Assembly (NCBI RefSeq): GCF_032118995.1
Contig: NC_092667.1
Coordinates: 6,006,931 to 6,070,930 of the forward strand
Length of the DNA stretch: 64,000 bases
From: Asterias amurensis
Lineage: Eukaryota > Echinodermata > Asteroidea > Forcipulatida > Asteriidae
Direction: 5' to 3'
Shown here piece by piece: positions 23,060-56,500 of the stretch; position 1 is the first letter of the stretch; each line of letters opens with the position of its first letter. The notes beneath the pieces are model-generated. The model searched no databases and was not told the origin of the DNA. It worked only from the letters and a program-made list of their open reading frames with translations. A program made the translations under genes and the position numbers.

Positions 23060-23341
23060 GTGTTGCACGTGGCTGAAAGTTTGTCAACCCCCACTGCTGT
23101 GCAGTTTTGGCTTACGGAAAGTGACAAATCACGAGCCTTGTTATATTTGGCTCGTTCTGACGTAGAAGACTTTCACCAATGGCAAGCGTCGACACGTAAT
23201 GTTCGGCGTTGTCCGACCGGCAAGTCAGCCGGCCAGCTGTTAAGAAGGTCAACAAACTTTCGTTGTCCGTCAGGAGTTCGCGGTAAAACCAGTTACACAC
23301 CATCATTAGAAGTGGGGAGAAATGCTCTTAAAAGTGGTAAG
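23060..23341 (+). promoter_or_regulatory. CpG-richer island, possible distal promoter/first exon
   Basis: About 280 bp with clearly more CpG (gcgtcgacacg, ttcggcgttgtccgaccggc, ccggccagctg, gttcgcgg) than its flanks. It has a CCAAT (near 23176), a variant of the motif-A word at 23075-23089 (gaaagtttgtcaacc), an inverted consensus motif A at 23247-23262 (ggtcaacaaactttcg) and a donor-like AGTGGTAAGT at 23334-23343. An open frame of 95 codons (23060-23347) matches nothing I know. It could be the first exon of the patched-type gene or of a noncoding RNA; both are inferences. Confidence 0.35.
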
Positions 23342-31015: not shown

Positions 31016-34000
31016 AACAGTCTTAAATGTTTTCAGCAAATTTGGACACCCTTAAAATACCAAATCGTGGCTGAAACCTTGGTCTGTATGCTTTGTGGGG
31101 GAAAATATCTAGGGCTACATTAAAGCCACACCTTTCATTAGGAAACCAAGCAATTTCCACACAATAGGATGTGTAACACACACAAGCACGCTCCCATTTA
31201 TACATATTTCATAGGAACTACCCATGAAAATTGCATTATCCAATAGCAACGATGCACGCTACGGCTGAACGAACGGGTTGAAGCCAGCAGACAAAGTTTG
31301 TTGAACCTCCTCTCTTTTCCTTGGATGCTGTTTCTGTTTCTGCGTTGGCCTGGAATTAATAGTAGACACAAAGCCAGCATGTACCAGTACAAGACTCACA
31401 ACAAAAGCTGCGCCGTGTATTTTCATTCACAAGGCATCTAGAGGTATCAAGGCAGTCGTATCGGAAGATGCAAATATTTGGAGCGGGGTCAGTTTTAGTG
31501 ATATTTCGTCTTGTTTTTCAATTTATTTAAGGCCGAGTGTAACACTTTCACAACATTTCGAGGAGTCTGATCTGAGTGCTACAGGACTACACTTCTTGGT
31601 TTTTTTTTGAGTTCTCGACGGTGAATTTGTCTGCTAAATGTGAGTAGCTTTCCTATTTTTCCCGCATCGTTGATCACGGTATTGTTACAAAATGGCAACC
31701 TTTTAACAATGGTATTGTTGTTGATGGCGGGTTTGTGGAGAAAAACAACCGAAATATTGCCGCCAATAAGAGTATGTTGTGGTTTTACTGCAATTTTATT
31801 TTTATTGTGTATTCCTAAAGATTATTCTTCCTGCGTATCGACATAACCGCTCTGGGTCCAATTGCATAGACATGCTTTTAAAAGCACGACAAATTTGGTC
31901 CACAAAAGGATCAAACAAAGTCACTTACTGGAAAAGTGTTACCAGCTTAAATGTCATGTTGTGTGCACAGTTTGTAACTGGTTCCTTGATTACTTTCGCT
32001 AAGCTGAATGTGTTTAAGCAGTATTGTCTGCTTTAACAGCTCTATCAAATTGGGCCCTAGACTTTCGGCAATTGCTACCACCTTTTGAAATAAAGTTTTC
32101 AAATGTTAGTTTGATCGTATATTATCTTCATTTATATAGGATTCAAACAATCAAATGGTTCCAAAAACCAAAATGAAAGAATAAAACATTTCCTTTACCT
32201 CTGAAATATCAGGTTTACTTAAACAGCAACTGGAGATGTGTATGAATTAAAAATTGAGTTTGGTGTAATAGTATGGAACTTAGCCAATATAAATAATTCC
32301 AACCATGTGTTTGCTTATTGCTATGTACATAGTGTTGAACGTGGCCAAGCAGTTAATCCCAGAACTGTGTGTGTATATTCGTGCAGCGTCCCGACGAAAG
32401 TTTGTTGGCCCCAAGATGTATCACGAGTTACATCCTGCTGAAGAATGAATAATTCATGAATAAATCATGCTATTTCCTAGATTTGAAGTTAGATTGACTG
32501 CATGTGGGAAACATTGTATCCTGTTTTGATGTAATGTTCCTTTTTTACGCAAGCTGCGTTACTTTTAGGTTAGTTTTTAAAATAGCGTCTTAATGTTTTT
32601 GGTACAGTATCAGGTCTTGAGTTTATGAAGGCTACCGAGGATGGCCTCTGATGCCCTTGTCTTGGCCTTTGTGCCCCTTCAAGAGTTTCCATAGACTTTA
32701 AGATCTTATAATTGAAGTACCCTTAGCAAAATTAAAACAGACTTTCCCTCTTTTAACGATGAAATTCCAGGCCTGCAGTATCGCTGATATTTTTATGCTG
32801 GTTTATACAGCAAATAAATATAAAAGGGAATAAATTTTATTACTTGCAAATAACCTCGCTGTATACATGTAAAAAAAATAACATGAGATGCTCTTTGGGT
32901 TCTGAAAAGGCAATTAATAATTGAGTAAATTATCATTACTTGCGGACTTTCAAGGCTGACTGTGCAAAAAATAATCTACTGGTATATGATTGGAATAAGT
33001 ACCTATTCATTAATAATATTAAAAGCATTTCATACAGCTCAGTTGTTAAAGTGCAGGCCTGTGTTAATCCTGAGGTCGTTTTGTCAAATCCAACTTTTGG
33101 TCTTTTTAAAAATTAATCGGAGAAGAAGTAAGAGGACTCAGTTAATATCAACCAACTGCCTTGAATATAAAAAATTGGGGAAAAAACTGTGACTGTTTTT
33201 ATTTTTTAAATTATTTATTTTGTACTGTAAAAACAACCTTCCCACTGAAACCCAACTGTGTGGGTTCTTCAGTGCTCCATATTTGGCACAATGTACCCCC
33301 CCTTAACACCAACTCGGCGGCGCGTTATCAACTAATCAGATTATAAAACGCTTTGTTTTAATCTCATCAATACGTTGAATTATTAAGCCGTTGTTAGAGA
33401 GCAGAGACAAAAGTTTGTTGGCCTCTAGGTCATGAATAATTCATGGGAGCTGTTTTATATTCAGACATCACACTGACGCACAGAGGAAAAAAATCCATTG
33501 TGTTGGGTTTTGGATTGCGTATTATCTTTGCGTCTGTTCTATTGTTTAATCCCAAATAAAACAATAGCAAATCAATTGTCATTATAACATTGTCACATAT
33601 TTTGTAGTAGAAAGAATTGTGGTGAAACAAAAAATACTGGATATTGATTTTGTTGAACTGGGAACACATTGTGATCAGTTGCATATAATTGAAAGGTCAC
33701 AAGGTCCTAGGTTTTCCATTGTATTTGACAGAGACTTATTTTTATTGAAAGTCAATTCATGCCTACATAAATAATACAAGTCATTGTTAAATATTGTGCC
33801 AGATGCTGCCACATTCATAAGTCCAATGTTTTCTTCTGTTGAGTTTGATTTATTACCTAAATATCTAATTAAACTCCCACCCACTCAGCCTCGTTTGGAG
33901 TGGCTTGCATTAAAACAATTATAATAGAAAGGTATGGAATTATTCTGATAAAACTCGATCATTATTTACAGTAGCTGTATTTTGTCTAATATTCTTGATT

Positions 34001-34967
34001 GGTCAACAATTGCTGAATTTGGTCAAGAATACCTTGCAAGATTTAATTGTGCAGTTTATCAGCCAAGAGTAATTTTATTACGGCGGATAAATTATTTCCA
34101 ATTGTAAAGTGTTTTGCTAGAGTACCATCTACACATTAATGCATGTTCTTTGTTCCGTCACTACTAATAATAAATTGCGCACGGCACACAGTCACATTGC
34201 TTACTACGTGGCTACGTCAATGTGCAGGGTGAAAAGTTTGTTGAACCCATCACTTGCAGTTTGCATATTCATGAGCATACTTGTTTATTCATGACCTTTA
34301 CTGGTCTAAGAATGGATCCTGAAACAAGTCCAAGGGAAAACCTGAAGGAAACACTATAGTCATTTATTTGAAAGAGTAGAATCAAATTACACATCAGATA
34401 TTCCTGTAGTCAATTCTTAAGCCTTAAGTTACTATATTCACTGTTGACTCCTGATCCATATTTTGTTTCCCTTATTTTTGCTTCTCGGTTACATCTTTGT
34501 AAGAGCGCTATATATAAATGCTTTTTGTATTGCATCATTGTAGTGTATTGTAATTCCTCCTGCGCCACTATACCAAAATATCAGTGAAAGTTTGTTGACC
34601 CAGGCCCCCTCCCTTAGTGTGAATAAAAAATTGAAGGGGGGGGGGGGCGCTCTGTAGTCTGGCTGATTCATGGGACTTTATTTCCTCTTAGAGTCAAGTC
34701 ATCCTACCTCCATGGTCATACCTACTGCAGATCTGGAAACTACCATGGCCTTTGCAATAGCATAGTGAAAGTTTGTCGAACCATGATGTAAAGGGGGCGG
34801 AGTTATGGAGAGTAGGGCCTTGAGAGATTTCCATTGTGTGGTGATCATGCTCTGTGTGTGAATGTCACTGTGAAAGTTTGTTGACCAGAGGGAAAGTCAT
34901 GCATATTCATGAGATTGTCTGCTGACTTTCTCTGCATGGATCCAGATGGGAAAGTTTGTTGACTGTG

Positions 34968-35130
34968 GGGAAACTGATGCATATTCATGGGTCAGCGAAT
35001 GGGTGGCCTGCATTGGCTAGCGGTCTCTAGGGAAACTGATGCATATTCATAATGTTCTCTGAATGGGTGGCCTGCATTGGCTGGAGTGATCTACTGGGAA
35101 ACTGATGCATATTCATAATTGCTTGTTCGC
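34968..35130 (+). repeat. 63-bp tandem duplication inside the motif cluster
   Basis: The unit (gg)gaaactgatgcatattcat ... gaatgggtggcctgcattgg ct... starts at about 34968, 35031 and 35097 (last copy partial). Each unit carries motif B and motif C; only the first keeps motif A just upstream. Confidence 0.8.
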
Positions 35131-35639
35131 TCTGTTGGTTGGAGCATGTTGGAAAGAAAGTAATGCATCTCTGAGTAGGTCAAGATGGGAAAGTTTATTG
35201 ACTGGTGTGAAAGTAATGTATATTCATGAGGTCTTTTAACCTGTGGTCTGTAATTGGCTGATGCTCTGTGGGTCAGGATGTGAAAGTTTGTTGACTGGCT
35301 GGGGAAATGATGCATAATGTAAAGGGCTGCTCGAATAAATTACCTCTTCATCACAGTCTGGATACAACTCAAGTCAGGATGAGCTGGTGTGATCACAGAG
35401 TGACTTGTGTTTTTTATAGGAGCCAGTTGGATGGAAGGCTGTAGGCGAGAGTAGTAGTTGTGAGAGGGTTTGTTGACAGTTAGATCATACATTATTCATG
35501 AGAAGTCTTCCCTAATTGGCTGATCTCCAGATGTCTTTAATAAAAAGTGGGATGGTGGGATGCGATACAGGTATGTGTATTATTTGTTCGCAGTGTGCGC
35601 TTTGGTCCTTTTGGTGCAACGGTTGCTCGGCGCAAGCGC

Positions 35640-35955
35640 AAGTTTTACTGTCAATGCGGTGATGAGGAATAGTTGGTGGGAGATCTAAACGTTCAAGGCA
35701 TTCATAAGAAAGTTTGTTGCCCTGGTGGGAGTTCAAAGCGCATGATTTATTCTGGTCGGTGATGAAGATGAATTGATGAGTTGATGAGGAAATACGAATG
35801 AACATTTGAGGCTTTCGTGAGAAAGTTTATTGGTTTGCCCAGGGAGTATTAAGGCAAAGCGCATGTTTCATTCTTGTTAGTGATTTAAGATGAATTGATG
35901 AATTGATGAGGAAATACAAATGAACAAAGGCTTTTATGAGAAAGTATGTTTCGTG
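35640..35955 (+). repeat. Tandem repeat of about 117 bp, about 2.5 copies
   Basis: Blocks atgaggaaatacgaatgaac, gaggctttcgtgagaaagtt and aaagcgcatg(a/t)tt(t)attc recur at roughly 115-120-bp spacing, each ending in a motif-A variant (35707, 35821 and a degraded one at 35940). Confidence 0.65.
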
Positions 35956-37160
35956 ACTTATATGGCGCCACATACTAAAAACAAAATAACAGAGCGAAGA
36001 CGGTTTTAAATGCTTGGCTTTATTTTTGTGACCGTCTATCACGAGGCTGAGCATTTAAATTTTTTGATTTTATTTTTGTTAACTAGCCCCAAACAATTTA
36101 TCAAGTTATTTCCAAGACCAAATGTCATGCCTGATGTAGGCAAATATATAAGTAAATTAATTAGCAAATAAATAATTTTTTTAATAAATTCCAAACAAAC
36201 AAACCATACACTATTTTGGGTGTAAAATTTGTTGCCAACAATTCAAGAAAATATGGTAAATCTTGACCTGCTTGTTTCCAGATAAATAGGAACAGAACTC
36301 ACTATTATTTGTTCATAAAAAGTTCCAGGATAATAAAATTAAAAAAATTGTTTCACTCCATACCACATCCTGGAAATCAGTCATTTATAATTGTGTCATC
36401 CATGGTTGACTCGAAAAGTTTGTTGGCCTGGCCTCGGCAATGGAAAATGAAAGGGAAGTAGCCACAGAGGTTAACTAAAAGTGCGTGTAGACCTAAGGAT
36501 GTTCATTCTGTAGTTGAACTGCCTACGTAAGCATCGATTGTTGATTTTGCTTGAAAGTTGTATGTGTAGCAAGTTACGATATCGATTGGGACAAAAGCAT
36601 TTGATTTCTGCGTTGGATTGATAAAAAAAGTCAAGTAGCACATGGATTCTCAGGTTAGTTGATTAACTCTTTCAGTGCCAAAGCTTTTTTTTATTCTAAG
36701 TTCAAAAAAAAATTGTGAAAAAAGAAAATGTTTCTCACCAAACGAATCGTATCTTGCTGATTTGTGTTGTCTTGGTACATCCCAAAGTCAATACTGTATA
36801 ATGTATTTCGTGAGTGAGAATGCCCTCTCTAGATAGGGTCGTGATTGATTTATTTCAAAATCCGGGAATCGTTTCTCAAAATGTTTATTCATTAACAACA
36901 GCTGCAGTGCTACTAAATAAGGATTTATGGCCATTCATTTTCTGAGTAAATACCAATTAGGCATACTTGAAATAATTAACAGCTCTTGTTTGTTGTTTTC
37001 GCAAGGCTTGTAAAACAGGATGTGGAATGGTTGTTAAAAACGTGGAGGGAAAAAACCATCACGAACTGTAGTTTCTTTTTAGGTCACCACTATCAGAACA
37101 AAGGAAAGTTTGTTGACTGCAACTCGACACCCAAAAGTCAAACTTAGAGATGCATTAATG

Positions 37161-38529
37161 GTTTCGGCTCATAATATATTTTTTTTCTTGTTTCCTTTAG
37201 CTACAATACATAATAGAGGAAAAGTTTTTTTGTTATGTGTCCCCCATAACGTTCTATAAAGTTATTTGTAAAGATCCATTTAAAATTGAGACGGGGAAAA
37301 GCTGCAGGCGGCATTTGTGATTGACTAAACCTTTACAATTCTATTCAGTCAGGTACTTCATGAACGTTGCTTATTGTTCAGTCCAGACACAATATATTGA
37401 TACTCCTTAGTAATCACTTTTTCTGCACGAGTTAGAAAGTCATTCGACCGTTTTGACCTGCCTATGCTTCTTTTACTCTGAAAAAAACACCTCGTTCTCT
37501 AAAACTACTTCATTCATAGGATGTTTCAGCCTGCCTCGTTTTTGAAAGGGCACCTTGGTAAAGTGCACCCTTTGATCATAGCTTTGATGAAGTTGTAAAT
37601 TGCTACTAAAGCATTTGAAGGGCACCAAGGCAATGACCAGGGGCATGGATAGAATCGCCTTTATTGCCTCAGTGAGAAATATCAGGCCTGGGTTTTCTCT
37701 CTAAAACTACATTCAAATGGGGTTGTTTCTAACAATGTCTTATGATATCAACAGCTCCCCAAGGCTCTTTACCAAGGAAGTTTTCATAGTCAATATTTTT
37801 TTTTTAAAGTAATTTACAAAGGAAGACTATACCTTCCCTTTAATCACATAGCCTGGTGAGTTGAAGCCTTGGTTCTGAAACTGCCCGATTCCTTTTTTCA
37901 TTGTTTGCCACATTTTCAGTTTCGACGAACTTTCAAAGTTGAAGTAGTGTTTGAATTGATTGTTTACAGGTTATTTTAATAGTGCCAGCATTTTAACACG
38001 ATTGTTTGGCACAAGTTCAGATAGCCATCGGGTATTAAAATTGCCCTTTGTGAACTTTTCTGTTAAATATTTTTTAGATTACCCGCATATTGATGCCTTT
38101 GTCTCATCATTGTTATGATCTCTTTTATTGCAAATTTTTGGACGATTTTTATTCATTTTAAAAAACCAACGATGTGTATCCCTTTTTGATTTGTTCTTTT
38201 GTTTCGGATGATGAATCATTTCTAGCTCTTTGTTTGAAATTCATGTATGACTGGTAGATTGTTTTGTGTCAGTTGGAGCAAAGGACAAACATTTGTTTTT
38301 TCTTTTTTCAATTTGATAATGGCAGGATGTGTGTAATAGCACACCTCTGATGTTGAAATTTGGGAGCAGTTAAATGGATTGACTTCTCACTGCTAAATGC
38401 TGAAAGTTTGCGGGGGGGGGGGGGATGGTTAAAGGGGCATGATGCCTCTGGACTGAGTGTTTTGGGCTGCCTAAAGCATTGTTAAACAAATAATATGGAT
38501 ATGGTAGGAAATAGTGTGCAATGACCAGG
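37161..38529. other. Intergenic/5' intron, no gene seen
   Basis: AT-rich with a 13-G run at 38412-38424. The text around 37530-37690 (gaaagggcaccttggtaaag...gggcatgg) resembles 1330-1440 and is a repeat remnant. No exon recognised. Confidence 0.4.
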
Positions 38530-38656
38530 GGTCGATTTCACAAAGAGTTAGGACTAGTCCTAAGAGATAAAAGCGTACAGTTAGTCCTAAGTTAGGACAA
38601 GTAACTCTCCCTAACTCAAGACAAGACTAGTCCTAACTCTTTGTGAAATCCACCCC
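38530..38656. mobile_element. Palindromic MITE (family I)
   Basis: The ends GGTCGATTTCACAAAGAGTT and aactctttgtgaaatccacc are near-perfect inverted repeats, with the inner palindrome aggactagtcct on both sides. 127 bp. A second copy lies at 50787-50937. Confidence 0.85.
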
Positions 38657-39240
38657 AGGGGGCATTCCGTGAAGTATCAGGCTTGCCTTTTTCTGGTAAG
38701 CATAATGTTGTTATGCTTAGCCACTTTTTGTGCTAAGCAGCAACTCTATGAAATTTGCCCCTGTAGTAGTGCAGTGAAACAATCAAACCATACGTGTAGT
38801 TTAGATGGGATTATGATCAGTCTGTCTCTGTATTTAACTTTTGGTTTTACCATTGAGGAAGGATTATGGTTTTACTGACACATAAATCATTCAGCAGCTG
38901 CCTTGAGATTGACCTTAACTCAAAGGTCCTTCATCTATCTAGAAGACTTTATGCTACCCTAGGGCGGGAGTGGGGCATGATGAGTCAAGTTGACAGTTTG
39001 TTAAGCCTCTGAAATGTTACTCTCTTCAGGTTTCCTTTTTGCTCTTATTTATGATTGCTTGTTTGTTTTTTGTTTTTGTTTTTTAGATAATAGCATTGAT
39101 TCATTTTTTATTTCAAAAGTTACCCTTTAATGTTTGATGAAATGCTTGGTCATCATTTCAATAATACATCGTTCGTTGCTTGTTTTACAATGCTAATAAT
39201 TTTGTTCTTTCTTTCTCAATCTTTGTTTGGTCTCTACAGA

Positions 39241-39594: not shown

Positions 39595-42500
39595 ATGGCT
39601 CAGTATAGTTGTGTGAATCACGTTATCAGTAGAGCATTCTACAAGTATGGGAAGCTGATCGCAAGGCACCCTCTCTTGTTTTTGATCAGTCCCTGTATCA
39701 TTATGATTCTACTCTGCATCGGAATCAGCCAAATTGAAATCAACGGAGATGTGGAGTATCTCTTTACGCCGGAAGATTGCAAAGCGCGACAAGACGGTGA
39801 GTTCACGCAAGAACATTTCCTTCTCGGGACAGAGGGCGGGAACTTTCTACCGAACCGAGAGCTCATAATGTTCAATCGAAGAGGTCGGATAATTGTAACA
39901 GCAATGGACGGCGGCTCCGCTCTCCGCCAGGACATTATAGAAGAGCTGATGAGACTTGATGAAAGAGTGCGGACATTCACTGTCGATTTTAACGACACGG
40001 AAACCAGCTACAATCAGATTTGCCAGAAATGGATGGGAGAGTGTGTCGATAATCAGCTACTTCTCTTTTACCGCGGTCGAGTCAGTGAATTCTCAAACAT
40101 CACGGTTACGTACCCACAAGCCGACCTGCCACTTATGTTTGGTCAAAGCATTCCACTCATGATCGGTCCAAACTTCGGAGGCGTTAAACTGAAAGATTCG
40201 AATGTAGTAGAAAGCGTCTTTGCCATTCGTCTGTTCTACGCCCTTGGACTCCCAATCGAGGAGGATCATCTTGCATTTGCTTGGGAGGAGGAATTCATTC
40301 AGGTGATGCAAGACTTCCAGAATGAGACTTCCCTGTTGAAGATTGCTGCCAGCCACTCGGAGACCCTATCGACGGAGGTTAACGAGGCATCATTTCGGGT
40401 CATACCACGTTTCATCTCCACATTCTGTATGTTGATTATTTTTGCCGTCTGTTCGTGTATCATGAGGGACTGGGTGCAGAGTAAGCCATGGCTAGGTCTG
40501 ATCGGTGTAGTCAACGCGGCCTTTAGCATCGTCTCTGCCATCGGGTTCCTTAGCCTTGTTGGGATGCCCTACAACGAGATGGTGTCCCTCATGCCATTCT
40601 TAATTCTTGGTAAGTAATATTGTGGTATTTAATCTTTGCTCAGAGAAAGGAGTTTTTGCTCGCTCAAACATTCATGCTCAATGCTAAGACAGTGAATGAA
40701 ATGATTGCTGAAGTATTTAATCCCCAGGGTGTTGCACTCTTTCGATGACCTTTAATATTTATAGGAACAATTTGTCAAGAAAGATACGACAGTAGGAATG
40801 GTTCAACTGAATACAATGAAACCAAAAGCAAATAGACACAGTACCTACAGATTAATGTCCCATCTGAAGAACAACACAATTATGGTAAAGTATCTTGCTC
40901 AAAGACATAAGTGCCACAACGGTGAGTCAAACACACTCTGCTGATCAGAAACACCTGAGCTTAAGTCCCATGGTCTTCACCACTTACCTAGGATATATTT
41001 CTAGAGCCCACGGCTTCCCAACTTGTTGGTTGTGTATACATGTAGACACATTAAAATGTATCTTTTTCTACCTGTTTGTTTTGTCTAGGTGTTGGGGTTG
41101 ACAATATGTTTATCATGATAGCAGCATGGCGACAGCTCAGTCTCTTTCTCTCTGTAGAGGAGCGTATGGGACGTACCTTCTCGGAGGCTGCTGTCTCTAT
41201 CACAATCACAAACGTCACAACGGTCTTGGCATTCATCATCGGAGCTAGCTCCCCTCTGCCGGGGGTCAGAACCTTCTGCATCTACGCTGGCATCGCGATG
41301 TTCTTTGTCTATTTCTACCAGATGACGTTCTTCGGAGCCTCAATGGCTTTGGTTGGCCAGCGAGAAGCCAACAATCTCCACTGCTACACATGCAAGAAGG
41401 TAACATCCAGAAATTTGATTCTGAAAAATTGGCATTTAGGGCGCAAAAAATTACTTTCTAAGATTTTCTTCAGAGTAGCATTTTACTTAATCTTTATCGG
41501 GTTGAAGTTTGGAGTTCTGAATAGGTTTATGATTGATAAACGCACTAAAACCAGAATTGCACTTTAGCCTGGGTGGTTAATTCCCTGAAAGAAGTTAATA
41601 TCTGAAAACTTACTTCAGTTGTTATGTGTCTTTTCTGAAGCATTTTACTTAAATCTATATCAGATTGAAATATGGAGTTCTGAACAGGTTTCATATTGAT
41701 AAACTCACTAAAACCAGAATTGTTCATTTACCTGCGTAGTTTAATTATGACGTTTATATCAAAATAAAATGATTTCTTTTGTTCTGACTATCAGGTTTTA
41801 CCTCGAGAGGAATCGCCCAACAAGTTCTACATGATCTTCTGCTCTGGTGGAATCTCAAGAACCAAACATAAGGGCTCTGTAATCGACCTGGAACATCGCA
41901 TCATGAAGTTCTTTCGTCTGTACTACGCTCCTTTCATCACAAAGCGTTGGGTCAAGACAATTGTTCTTATACTCTACATTCTTTATCTCAGCGGTGCTCT
42001 CTATGGCTGCTCACAAATCAAGCAAGGGCTTGCCTTGAAAAACCTGGCCATGGACAACTCTCCTGCCTTTGAATTCTACGATTTGGAAGATGTGCATTTC
42101 CGTGATGTTGGGCCGGCAATCAGCGTGGTCTTCAAGGATGAGGTGAAGTACTGGGACCAGGAGGTGCAGGAGAAGATTGAGAACATGACCCACGAATTGG
42201 AACTGAACGACCATGCATTCGGGGAGGAGCTGACGCAGTCTTGGTTAAGAGACTTCTGCAAGTACTGGCAGGCCTTTCTGTTGTACAGACCTGACGAGAA
42301 CGTCAAACCAGGGAAGGATGGATTCATGTATGTCTTAACGGAGCATTTTCTGAAGGATCCACGCTATTTGATGTATCAGTTGGATATTGTGATCAGTGAG
42401 GATGACACCGCCGGGGTAAACCGCAGCATTAAACAGTCACGGGTAATGTTACAGACGAAGAATCTACATACACTGACGGATGAGACGGAGACCATGTTGA

Positions 42501-43222
42501 GCTTAAGGGAGACTGTTGAGGCTTCTCCCTTTGATGTGATCGTCTACCATCCAGCGTTTGTTCTCTATGAGAGCTACGTGGGTATCATCCCTAGCCTTCT
42601 GCAAACCCTAGGGATCGCATTGGCGTGCATGTTCCTGGTAGCTGTTATCATGATACCGCATCCAGTCTGCGCCGTTTGGGTCTCGCTCTGCGTTATCTCA
42701 ATCGATGTCGCGGTTTTGGGCTACATGGCCCTCTGGGGAGTCAACATTGATCCAATCTCAATGGTAAACATAATCCTCTGCATAGGTTTCAGCGTTGACT
42801 TCTCTGCGCACATCACATACGCATTTGTCGTCGCCCCAAAAGAAAACTCTGATGATCGCGCAAAGTACGCCCTTCACGCCTTAGGGATGGCGATCCTTCA
42901 GGGTGCGCTATCATCAATCATCGCTATCTCTGCGCTATCGACAGCCCCCATTTATATCTTCCGGATTTTTTTCAAGACACTATTTCTTGTGATGGTGTTT
43001 GGGGCGATGCACGGACTGGTCATCCTCCCCGTCGTTTTAACTTTTATGGGGAGGTGTATGCCTCACCAAGTTCCCAGGGAACATGAAGATGAGAAAGAGA
43101 AACTGCCGGAGGAGGGTCACCAACCCGCTGTCGCGGCCGCTTCTAGTTTATTGACCATTCCACTCAAGACAATGCCTGGTGAGCATGAAACAATTGTTGA
43201 TCTCCGTGTTACAACAGTATAG
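39595..43222 (+). CDS. PTCHD3: Patched domain-containing protein 3-like (RND/SSD membrane protein)
   Basis: Coding exons 39595-40609, 41089-41399 and 41795-43222 fit in phase, giving 917 residues. The layout is that of patched-related RND permeases: TM1 near 25-48 (HPLLFLISPCIIMILLCIG), a large extracellular loop, a sterol-sensing-like bundle from about 268, the TM4 motif GVGVDNMF (D343), a second TM7 near 480, a second large loop, and TM10 GFSVDFSAH (D777). The paired TM4/TM10 aspartates are the proton/ion-relay positions of this family. The N terminus CVNHVISRAFYKYGKLIARH and block VGMPYNEMVSLMPFLILG also fit. The C-terminal 45 residues are polar and end VTTV, a class I PDZ-ligand pattern. 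PTCHD3/ptr proteins are linked to membrane lipid or sterol handling; the substrate is unknown. Not canonical Patched: shorter, and no hedgehog-specific feature is recognised. The symbol is by resemblance; orthology is not tested. Confidence 0.88.
40853..40995 (-). repeat. tRNA-derived SINE (family A), inverted, in intron 1 of the patched-type gene
   Basis: On the minus strand the head has agcagagtgtg and a degraded B box; on the + strand it is seen as tgctgatcagaaacacctga preceded by aatgtcccatctgaagaaca and tatcttgctcaaagacataa. Truncated. Confidence 0.6.
41440..41740. repeat. Direct duplication in intron 2 of the patched-type gene
   Basis: tagcattttacttaatcttt ... cactaaaaccagaattgcac (41475-41565) is repeated as agcattttacttaaatctat ... 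actaaaaccagaattgttca (41637-41726), a spacing of about 161 bp. A short local tandem duplication covering the donor-side half of the intron. Confidence 0.7.
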
Positions 43223-53500: not shown

Positions 53501-56500
53501 TGTTGTTGCTGAAGATGAGCAGAGCACACTTGTTGAGCCACTTCTTTATTCCAACCTTGGGTCTTTTTCAAATCCAAATTTCTTCCTGACTGCAACATTC
53601 ACACATTTATGTTTTACACTGTTCTTCCCAATTCAGCTACAGTAAACGGTGGTGCAAAAAGTAAGGTGTCCAGCAAGCCAAGCACAGAGGAGTTTGCATT
53701 ACCATCACTCAAGAATATAACCAGCGATAGGGGTCAAGCGTTCCAGGCTGCTGATCTCGGAGAGTCTTTCGCTCCGGTTAATTTTAATTTCAATCTGCAG
53801 TTTGAGCCCATGAGCCCGGCCAGCACACAGAGTTTTCTTTTCCCGGGAACAGCCACGAGAAAAGGAAGGTAAGACAGTTTGAAAAAGAAATATAATGTGA
53901 TTTGATGATAATTATAATTATCAATGTAATGTTCTTGATGATCACCTTAACTGTTATTAAGTCTGCTTTGGTGCAACAAATCCATCTAAAACTTAGCTAA
54001 GTATTGTTTGAAGCTGTGCATGGTGTGGAGAAATTATGCTTTGGTGCAACCAATCCATCTAATACTTAGCTAAGTATTGTTTAAAGCTGTGCATGGTGTG
54101 GAGAAATTATGCTTTGGTGCAACCAATCCATCTAATACTTAGCTAAGTATTGTTTAAAGCTTTGCATGGTGTGGAGAAATAAGAAGAAACTATAAATAAA
54201 TAGTGAACTTGTCTGTACAACCATGTGTAAATCTCTTAAGGTGAGTGTTGGCTCTAGCTGTTTGGATGCTGAAAGGGGACCAGCAGTTTTCCTATTGTAA
54301 GGGGTACTTCTATAAGGCACCACAGCAATTTCTCTGGGTGCCATAGGTTGTTTAAGGGCTTGCTGACAACTCGGCTTAAAAACAATCTTTGTGCTTTGTG
54401 AATTGGAGCCCTGGACGTAATCAAGGCTGTTTTTTCCTTAGTCTGTAGTTAAATGGAGGTCATTGTCTCCGTTGCCTCGCTCTGTGCCTCGGTTCCCCTT
54501 CAAAAGTTTCAAATAGACTTTCAGATGCCTTGGCAAAATAAAAATGGCCTTGCCCTCTTAAAGATGAAGATCCAATAACTAACTCTGACCGAAACATTTA
54601 AAATCAACAGGTGTTCAACGCCCCTCTCAAGTATGCGAAGAAAGAGAGATCCCTCCCCGCAACCTCTAGAGATCTCTGCCATCTCTGCTCCTGTCGTCCA
54701 TTCTCCAAAGAAAGTTCCCGCGCCGCAACCTATGGAGATCTCTGCCATCTCTGCGCCTGTCGCCCATTCTCCAAAGAGAGTTCCCGCCCCGCAACCTCTG
54801 GAGATATCTGCCATCTCTGCGCCTGTCGCCCATTCTCCAAAGAGAGTTCCCGCTCCGCAACCTCTTGAGGTCTCTGCCATCTCTGCTCCTGTTGTCCATT
54901 CTCCAAAGAGAGTCGTCCACTCTCCAGCCAAGAAACATGGTATGTTGTCATGTGACAGTCTTGCCTTTGTTCTCAAGTTGTAATTCAATTCAGTCTAATG
55001 TTGAGCTGATGTAATTTAGATTGTTACATATGAGACAGTACAGTGTTTCAGTATGGAATTGTCGTTCTAGTTAAGACTTCAGTTATGTGACATTTCTCCG
55101 TTTCTAAATGGAATGCCGGTGGGGGTGTAGGGTTCTTTTTGCCTAAACCAGGAATGTAATTTCTCCGTAAAAAAAAGAAAAATTTAAGATGGTGCCCCAG
55201 ATTGCAGAGTAGTAGGGCTTTAAAAACCAAAGATAAATGTTAATACTTGGCTTCATGCTGGCAAGTTTTGTAACTCTGAGCTCAGAGTTCAGGTTTTTTC
55301 TCAACCCTAACCCTGAGACTTGCACAGTGCGTACAATGTTTGTTCAAGCAGGTTAGACTTCTTTTACTTAGGAGAGTTCTGTTCCACCATTTTTATTTAC
55401 TGTACCATACATTTAATCAGGAGGTGTTTCTCTTTCAGACGTATCATCCTTCCGTAGTTTAGTGGTGACAGAGACAGCAAGGTTGAACGACTTAAGCAGT
55501 AAATGGGAGACAGTTCAAAAAGTAGAGACACTCACCGAGGAAGGTAAGTTGTTGAAGCAAGCACAAAAATCAGCTAAGCACAACAAAATTATGCTTACAA
55601 GAATAAGGTTACCAGCTAAACTACCGTGTCACGTCTATGATCATACCTTTAACTACCGATACTTATTTATTCTTCCTTGAGCCTAATCGTAGTATTCCTT
55701 TGTTCTTAGTACTTGGTGAGATCCGCAGCACTATCGGCAAGGCCCAGCTTCTAATAGACCAGAGGTTTAAGCAGTTCTCTGGACTAGTGGATAACTGTGA
55801 GTTTGGCAGTGGTGAGAAAGAGACCAATCCATCGGATCTAACAGGATTCTGGGACATGATCTTCTTTCAGGTAGCTAAAATCAGACATAATGTTATATGG
55901 AAAGGTTTGCGCTAACACCATGTAATGCTCAGATCGTCTTCTGGAGAAAGCTGTCTCCAGAAGGCGATCAGAGCATACAGATCGAAATGTCAAGTTGAAA
56001 CCAACGGTTCTTTTAAGAACCACCCCAACTCATTAAAAATAGTCATTACATGGTGTTACCGCAAACCTTTCTTATCGTATTTCCACCATGCAAAGTTTCA
56101 AATCCTACTTAGGCATAATGTTCTTCCAAACTAAGACTGTTTTCTGATTATTATTTTTTTGCCCTTGGAAAAAAACAGATTAGATCCCCGGTGCTGGAAC
56201 TCTAAAAACACAACATCAACTCACTCCAGACTTTCAAGTCTAAATTGAAAACTCATCTATTCTCTTCTCGCCCTTTACCTGTATATTTAGCAGCGCCCTG
56301 TACTATTGGGAAACGCACTCTATAAAGCCTGGATCATACTGAATACTGCGGATGCAAATGCGAAGCGAATAATCACATCACAAGTCTGTTTTCGCTGCAC
56401 AGCTCAACTGTTGCAAACTATTGGCTGAGAATTTGTGACGTAAAGATTTGCTTTACATTTGCAGGAAGAATGGACCGGGCTGTAGTCTTACTAATTGTTT

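What the first reader, a model, noticed from the sequence alone, without database searches (positions are those of the whole stretch)
31292..37160. One-strand cluster of a fixed-order, fixed-spacing composite motif (A-B-C)
Seen: motif A (GAAAGTTTGTTGACC) occurs about 15 times in 6 kb, in one orientation. Motif B (ATGCATATTCATGA/ATGAATAATTCAT) follows 23-29 bp later in seven cases (exactly 27 bp at 34872/34899, 34950/34977 and 35189/35216). Motif C (ATTGGCT) follows B by 27-37 bp at four places. Distances between modules vary (78-690 bp) and intervening sequence is mostly unrelated, so this is not a plain satellite. Known: A's reverse strand fits the forkhead consensus RYMAACA; B is one mismatch from the POU-dimer MORE ATGCATATGCAT; ATTGGCT is an inverted CCAAT. 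Inference: either a homotypic enhancer in the upstream region of the patched-type gene, or repeated small promoters, since an element pair about 27 bp apart recalls PSE-TATA spacing of SNAPc-dependent small-RNA genes, each driving a short RNA.
Basis: partly seen in the sequence, partly recalled or inferred. Interest (0 to 1): 0.9.

Follow-up and report, generated by a model that had tools for sequence, protein, structure and literature searches.

The report
Oriented forkhead-POU site cluster, sea star
Near a patched-type gene of a sea star lies a real, same-direction cluster of two short DNA motifs that looks like a gene-control region, and one of the two motifs turns up far more often across that genome than chance would give.

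Summary
Motif A (core AAAGTTTGTTG) occurs 13 times at <=2 mismatches in 31,292-37,104, all on +; mean identity among 11 of 14 modules is 0.84 inside A, 0.25 in flanks, background 0.26. Motif B fits the POU-homodimer elements MORE/MORE+1 perfectly 7 times there (0.075 expected) and never elsewhere in the window. Six of 12 B sites lie 23-29 bp after an A. The genome is Asterias amurensis. A strict A-B pattern has 7 hits in 491 Mb, 4 in this window; 6-7 are expected by chance genome-wide, so the concentration here is what counts. Dense A arrays on contig 4 are unrelated satellites. B alone is genome-wide: 194 against about 10 expected, partly in transposon ends and small tandem arrays. Best reading: a heterotypic regulatory cluster (forkhead-like A, POU-dimer B, some CCAAT) in the presumed promoter/first-intron region of a PTCHD3-like gene. 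Binding, target and activity are inferred; no cross-species, chromatin or RNA data. The small-RNA-promoter reading is disfavoured, not excluded.

The parts
31292..31306 (+). A site (CAAAGTTTGTTGAAC), 230 bp upstream of a TATA-like box at 31522
31522..31639 (+). possible promoter and first exon: TATA-like TTTATTTAAGG at 31522, CpG o/e 1.07 in 31401-31800, donor-like AAAT|GTGAGT at 31640 (inferred, no transcript data)
32396..32468 (+). module: A at 32396, B (MORE+1 ATGAATAATTCAT) at 32445 (49 bp), a second B-like site (1 mismatch) at 32456
33409..33444 (+). module: A at 33409, B (MORE+1) at 33432, 23 bp
34232..34294 (+). module: A at 34232, B (1 mismatch) at 34261, a weaker B-like site (3 mismatches) at 34281
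34586..34600 (+). exact A; no B within 60 bp after it
34767..34781 (+). A (GAAAGTTTGTCGAAC); no B within 60 bp after it
34872..35322 (+). dense core, partly tandem duplicated: A at 34872, 34950, 35189, 35282; B at 34899, 34977, 35039, 35105, 35216 and degraded at 35310; ATTGGCT at 35012, 35076, 35253
35464..35521 (+). module: weak A (3 mismatches) at 35464, B (MORE+1, 1 mismatch) at 35487, ATTGGCT at 35515
35708..35835 (+). A at 35708 and degraded A at 35821 in a 113-122 bp tandem duplication
36414..36428 (+). A site, no B within 60 bp after it
37104..37118 (+). A site, no B within 60 bp after it
23075..23089 (+). outlying A-like site (13/15) in a CpG-rich stretch
23247..23261 (-). outlying exact A on the minus strand, same CpG-rich stretch, donor-like GTAAGT at 23337
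39595..43222 (+). coding exons of a PTCHD3-like gene (39595-40609, 41089-41399, 41795-43222); joined protein 97% identical to an Asterias rubens PTCHD3-like protein

Best explanation
The interval is a heterotypic, same-orientation cluster of transcription-factor sites that controls transcription from this locus, most likely of the PTCHD3-like gene downstream. A typical module is a forkhead-like site (A, read on the reverse strand as GGTCAACAAACTTTC) followed 23-29 bp later by a POU homodimer site (B, MORE or MORE+1), in four places with an inverted CCAAT box (C) about 30 bp further on; some A sites stand alone. Shown here: the motifs, their order, strand and spacing, their excess over chance, the unrelated flanks outside the tandem core, and the concentration of pairs in this locus. 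Inferred: that forkhead and POU-class proteins bind, that the region is an enhancer or promoter-proximal array, the target gene, and that the core grew by local tandem duplication of a B-bearing unit with retention of the sites.
For: A identity 0.84 against 0.25 in flanks (background 0.26) across 11 of 14 modules, the core copies 34950, 35189 and 35282 dropped. Seven perfect MORE/MORE+1 sites in 6 kb against 0.075 expected (maximum 1 in 200 Markov sequences); none perfect elsewhere in the window. Spacers 0 and 1 between half-sites match the MORE and MORE+1 forms reported for class III POU factors, including the half-site ATTCAT (PMC4576985, passages). Six of 12 B sites lie 23-29 bp after an A; 6 of 5,999 circular shifts equal this, and 20,000 random placements reach at most 4. 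A word-enrichment scan returned mainly A- and B-derived words among its 40 listed. A strict A-B pattern has 4 of its 7 genome-wide hits in this 64-kb window, against 5.8-6.9 expected in the whole genome. B alone is enriched genome-wide, 194 against about 10. An A and a CCAAT (31240) lie upstream of a CpG-rich, TATA-bearing stretch. Published reporter work reports that site orientation and order matter (PMC10122648, title and start of abstract only).
Against: No expression, chromatin, binding or cross-species data. The constrained A core is longer than a forkhead site, so another protein may bind it. Five of the 7 perfect B sites sit in the tandem core and are not independent. Strict orientation is unusual for an enhancer (general knowledge). 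Eight of 15 A sites have no B 20-60 bp after them, 4 of 12 B sites no A before. Outside the window the strict pair occurs 3 times, at or below chance, one of them with a one-mismatch MORE+1 site. Nine exact A copies elsewhere outside satellites (3-4 expected) have no B-like site within 200 bp in 9 of 9 loci, so A alone does not mark such modules. B also occurs in transposon-like ends, so its excess is partly copying.
Confidence: 0.57

Rival explanations
1. A decayed minisatellite without function: an ancestral A-B unit was duplicated along 6 kb and the flanks have drifted away.
For: Tandem duplications are plain at 34,968-35,119 and around 35.7-35.95 kb; common orientation follows from tandem origin.
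Against: Neutral drift would not leave an 11-bp core nearly invariant in 11 modules whose flanks are at background identity; MORE and MORE+1 forms alternate while the half-sites stay.
Confidence: 0.2
2. Repeated small promoters (PSE-TATA like), each driving a short RNA.
For: Pairs about 27 bp apart and one orientation; a T4 run within 250 bp after 11 of 15 A sites; one of six U2 upstreams (L048) has AAGTTTGGCAACC, 10 of 13 letters as A by eye; 21U-RNA promoters of C. elegans are a recalled parallel.
Against: The A matrix scores at random level in the 90 bp upstream of 6 of 6 U2 genes tested (best 1.2; random 95% point 3.4), 5 of which share a different element, ACAAC(C/T) type, near -60; over 200 bp one of them reaches 8.9, at -125. 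No Rfam match at E<=1. No T4 for 284-648 bp after four consecutive core A sites. The U6 test failed: the returned copies looked degenerate by eye.
Confidence: 0.08
3. RNA-level elements: A and B act in the sense transcript of the gene's first intron, which would explain one-strandedness.
For: The interval copies of A at <=2 mismatches are all on the coding strand of the PTCHD3-like gene.
Against: B has the two-half-site form of a DNA-bound dimer with spacer 0 or 1; an exact A lies on the - strand at 23,247. That the interval is transcribed is itself inferred.
Confidence: 0.07
4. Transposon-derived: B, or the whole module, was brought by a mobile element.
For: Three exact B sites picked from +/- pairs share flanks and carry B in near-duplicate, as ends of one inverted-repeat family.
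Against: Window flanks do not match that element; 5 of 5 unpaired B sites sampled have mutually unrelated flanks; the strict A-B pair is not above chance outside this window.
Confidence: 0.07

Closest known systems
Homotypic and heterotypic clusters of transcription-factor sites (enhancer type)
   Same: Many copies of few short motifs in a few kb near a gene, unrelated flanks, spacing preference between partners
   Different: One orientation and fixed order, an 11-bp core kept almost unchanged; growth partly by tandem duplication
POU homodimer elements MORE and MORE+1 (Oct6, Brn1, Brn2; PMC4576985, passages)
   Same: Two half-sites ATGNAT/ATNCAT with 0 or 1 base between; ATTCAT half-site as in variant MORE
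   Different: Hybrid ATGCAT-ATTCAT is the commonest perfect form here (4 of 7); 6 of 8 sampled genomic copies begin TCATGCAT; clustered, and paired with A
Forkhead plus POU control of silk genes in Bombyx (SGF-1, POU-M1; recalled, papers only listed)
   Same: The same two factor classes would act together
   Different: Different animals and genes; no binding data here
SNAPc-dependent small-RNA promoters (PSE)
   Same: Two elements about 27 bp apart, oriented
   Different: A is not the element shared upstream of U2 genes in this genome; no known RNA found

Membership tests
Homotypic/heterotypic transcription-factor site cluster | Motif density far above chance in a few kb | tested here: met
Homotypic/heterotypic transcription-factor site cluster | Motifs kept while flanks are not | tested here: met
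   within the locus only: 0.84 against 0.25; across species not testable here
Homotypic/heterotypic transcription-factor site cluster | Regulatory activity or open chromatin | not testable with these tools
   no such data held
POU homodimer element (MORE/MORE+1) | Half-sites ATGNAT and ATNCAT with 0 or 1 base between | tested here: met
   7 perfect (5 with spacer 0, 2 with spacer 1); 12 at <=1 mismatch with spacers 0-2 allowed
POU homodimer element (MORE/MORE+1) | Bound by POU proteins | not testable with these tools
   no binding data; the genome-wide half-site spacing test did not complete
Forkhead site | Match to RYMAAYA | tested here: met
   GTCAACA on the reverse strand of A, read directly; consensus recalled, named in papers only listed. 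Weak test: the kept core is longer
SNAPc PSE promoter | Same element upstream of snRNA genes of this genome | tested here: not met
   6 of 6 U2 upstreams (90 bp) at random score, out of 36 U2 matches listed; U6 inconclusive
SNAPc PSE promoter | Defined small RNA downstream | tested here: inconclusive
   no Rfam match at E<=1, but unknown families cannot be seen; T4 within 250 bp after 11 of 15 A sites
Satellite or dispersed repeat | Alignable copies of the module elsewhere | tested here: not met
   by pattern only: strict A-B has 3 hits outside the window, none with a perfect dimer, one with a one-mismatch form; C4 arrays are different repeats. No alignment search of the interval was run

The most novel reading that the evidence does not exclude
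Asterias carries a genome-wide class of POU-dimer-site arrays (TCATGCAT-ATTCATGA) that arise again and again by local tandem duplication of short units with otherwise unrelated sequence, also inside a DNA transposon's ends; at this locus such an array has been welded to an orientation-locked partner site A, giving a repeated, directional regulatory code.
Probability: 0.25. Interest if true: 0.72.

Novelty: new variant of a known kind. Interest (0 to 1): 0.5.

Why it matters
If real, the locus is a natural experiment on regulatory grammar: several natural replicates of one ordered, oriented site pair with unrelated filler in a single locus, whose order, spacing and direction can be tested copy by copy. 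The genome-wide B arrays would let one ask whether selection repeatedly favours duplication of a dimer site to build enhancers.

Tried and rejected
Satellite origin: 55 of 67 exact A copies (9 + 46) lie in two one-strand arrays on contig 4, a 187-bp satellite with A at 0-2 mismatches and no perfect B in 12 of 12 pieces read (one-mismatch hits in 8 of 12, up to 9 per 10 kb). Another listed A-like set is a 493-bp tandem repeat (L042, TRF). Rejected as the source because flanks differ.

snRNA promoter: U2 upstreams tested, negative over 90 bp (6 of 36 listed U2 matches); over 200 bp one reaches 8.9 at -125. No perfect B lies upstream of those six U2 genes, but 2 of 6 (L045, L046) have a one-mismatch MORE at -311, not followed up. 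U6 inconclusive: 6 matches, the copies read looked degenerate, and an exact conserved U6 stretch was not found (the tool skips very common words).

Sex-region idea: the candidate region in print is on chromosome 10 (PMC11757944, passages). Literature: the reverse strand of A has no hit; the B12 strings occur in 9 papers on other matters by title; one search was too broad to tell anything. I make no wider claim that this is unpublished.

Not answered: PTCHD3 paralogs, the half-site spacing test (115, 118, 121, 123, 125, 127, 129, 131, 134, 137, 139) and the permuted-word control for B pairs (104, 106, 116, 119, 128, 132, 135, 140, 141). So the B-pair excess (26 hits at 10 places; 0.0007 by independence; reversed control 0, a weak control since it contains CpG) is not corrected for tandem repeats, which multiply any word.

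Full report
Identity of the sequence. The window is G000:C20:6,006,931-6,070,930 of a 491,506,623-base genome in 23 contigs. Contig lengths C1 38,009,675, C9 23,750,475 and C19 15,767,093 equal the maximum, N50 and N90 given for the Asterias amurensis assembly GCA_032118995.1 (PMC10625585, passages; the paper gives 22 scaffolds and 491,537,102 bases, a small difference). A protein named as Asterias amurensis lies on a contig of 26,310,238 bases, the length of C6. A PTCHD3-like gene lies at 39,595-43,222; its joined protein is 97% identical over its length to an Asterias rubens PTCHD3-like entry and 70% and 67% to Patiria and Acanthaster entries (Pfam Patched and sterol-sensing domains). Further left are glutaredoxin and DUF547 exons and a DEP match below its cut-off.

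The motif A. GAAAGTTTGTTGACC at <=2 mismatches occurs 14 times on + and once on - in 64 kb; 13 of the + sites lie in 31,292-37,104. A matrix made from 14 sites adds 35,821 and a weak 36,223. Across 11 of 14 modules (34,950, 35,189 and 35,282 dropped as near-duplicates) mean pairwise identity is 0.84 within A, 0.25 in the 40 bases before and 0.25 in the 60 bases after; background is 0.26. So A is a discrete element and not the relic of an alignable repeat.

The motif B. Allowing ATGNAT, 0-2 bases, ATNCAT, the interval 31.2-37.2 kb holds 12 sites at <=1 mismatch (1.63 expected, maximum 9 in 200 Markov sequences) and 7 perfect ones (0.075 expected, maximum 1); the remaining 58 kb hold 14 at 1 mismatch and none perfect. 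Five perfect sites have spacer 0 and two have spacer 1. Passages of PMC4576985 describe MORE, the variant ATGAATATTCAT, and MORE+1 for class III POU factors. The five perfect spacer-0 sites lie in the partly tandem core and are not independent.

The arrangement. Six of 12 B sites lie 23-29 bp after an A start, none lies before an A by 20-47 bp, and 6 of 5,999 circular shifts do as well. ATTGGCT follows B starts by 28-37 bp at four places. Seven of 15 A sites have a B 20-60 bp after them and 8 do not; 8 of 12 B sites have an A 20-60 bp before and 4 do not. A word-enrichment scan returned mainly A- and B-derived words among the 40 listed.

The setting. A at 31,292 and a CCAAT at 31,240 precede a TATA-like box at 31,522 and a donor-like GTGAGT at 31,640, in a CpG-rich stretch (o/e 1.07). 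I read this as a possible first exon, which would put the cluster in promoter and first intron; no transcript data support it. Another CpG-rich stretch at 23.0-23.4 kb carries an exact A on - and a near copy on +.

The genome-wide test. Exact A: 67 copies, 63 forward and 4 reverse, reversed control 3. Fifty-five lie in two contig-4 arrays of a 187-bp satellite; 12 are elsewhere, 3 of them in the window, against 3-4 expected in all. The 9 others have no B-like site within 200 bp. A looser A pattern gives 157 forward and 50 reverse (control 17 and 12), listed only in part; the listed rows include a 493-bp tandem repeat. The strict pair AAAGTTTGTTGN{5,35}ATTCATG gives 7 hits (control 1), 4 in the window, against 5.8-6.9 expected in the whole genome. 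The total is thus no excess; what stands out is four in 64 kb. Of the 3 others none has a perfect dimer and one (C7) has a one-mismatch MORE+1 site 37 bp after the core start. The pattern misses degraded and wide modules, so it is a strict count.

B elsewhere. ATGCATATTCATGA occurs 194 times, 100 forward and 94 reverse, against 10-11 by Markov models. Among the 100 rows listed, nine +/- pairs 1.7-4.9 kb apart suggest inverted-repeat elements. I sampled one arm of three such pairs, which share flanks and hold B in near-duplicate, and 5 unpaired sites, whose flanks are unrelated. Pairs of ATGCATATTCAT with starts 42-72 bp apart occur in 26 hits at 10 places (0.0007 expected by independence). At 4 of the 9 places outside the window I read 700 bases each: arrays of 58, 43 and 48 bp or irregular, with different unit sequence around the same B. 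Tandem arrays multiply any word they contain and the permuted-word control did not complete, so I claim an excess for B sites, not for the number of arrays.

Mechanism. Most likely POU dimers on B and a forkhead-like protein on A act together, with a CCAAT-binding factor in the core, to drive the PTCHD3-like gene. Steps shown: motif identity, order, spacing, concentration here. Steps inferred: binding, target, activity. The forkhead assignment of A is the weakest, since the constrained core is longer than a forkhead site.

Rivals. Small-RNA promoters: U2 upstreams at random level over 90 bp in 6 of 6 tested and no Rfam match speak against; the T4 test is mixed (none for 284-648 bp after four core A sites, but within 250 bp after 11 of 15), and 2 of 6 U2 genes have a one-mismatch MORE at -311. 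A functionless decayed array remains possible at one in five; it does not explain the sharp edge between A and its flanks. RNA-level action and transposon origin are less likely.

Verdict. A confirmed observation, a partly right interpretation, and a new variant of a known kind. Interest 0.5: an unusually ordered and oriented natural site array and a genome-wide B element that invites a test, but without conservation or functional data.

Noticed in passing
G000:C4:11.793-11.833 Mb and 14.839-14.916 Mb (L009-L020): A 187-bp satellite on one chromosome; the A-like matches are on one strand in the 12 pieces read. Nucleosome-size period, possibly centromeric.
   Followed up: partly
G000:C4:8.71-8.80, 9.70-9.73 and 12.26-12.34 Mb (samples L042, L043): A 493-bp tandem repeat (91% matches in L042) with a short inverted repeat (AAAGGGC..GCCCTTT); in L042 one Rfam match, far below its cut-off. 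The 9.70-Mb set was not read.
   Followed up: partly
L056, L057, L058: Inverted-repeat DNA element, by the +/- pairing of its ends, whose ends carry the B motif in near-duplicate.
   Followed up: partly
L045 and L046, 311 bp upstream of U2: One-mismatch MORE at the same place upstream of two U2 genes; might be a distal element or shared ancestry.
   Followed up: no
G000:C10:3,862,489-3,863,514: 63-bp tandem array; the listed matches hold B and CCAAT.
   Followed up: no
L052 (C8:20,871,901-20,872,600): Three 58-bp B units directly after the donor of an exon that looks by eye like an SH3-domain exon.
   Followed up: no
G000:C9:17.755-17.911 Mb: Array of U2 genes mostly about 5.4 kb apart, with lower-scoring copies mostly towards the high-coordinate end.
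   Followed up: no
window 56001-56046: Match to the histone 3' stem-loop family on + strand, near exons that look DLGAP5-like by eye.
   Followed up: no
window 38520-38660: Palindromic stretch (GGACTAGTCCTAA type, by eye) that looks like a short interspersed element.
   Followed up: no
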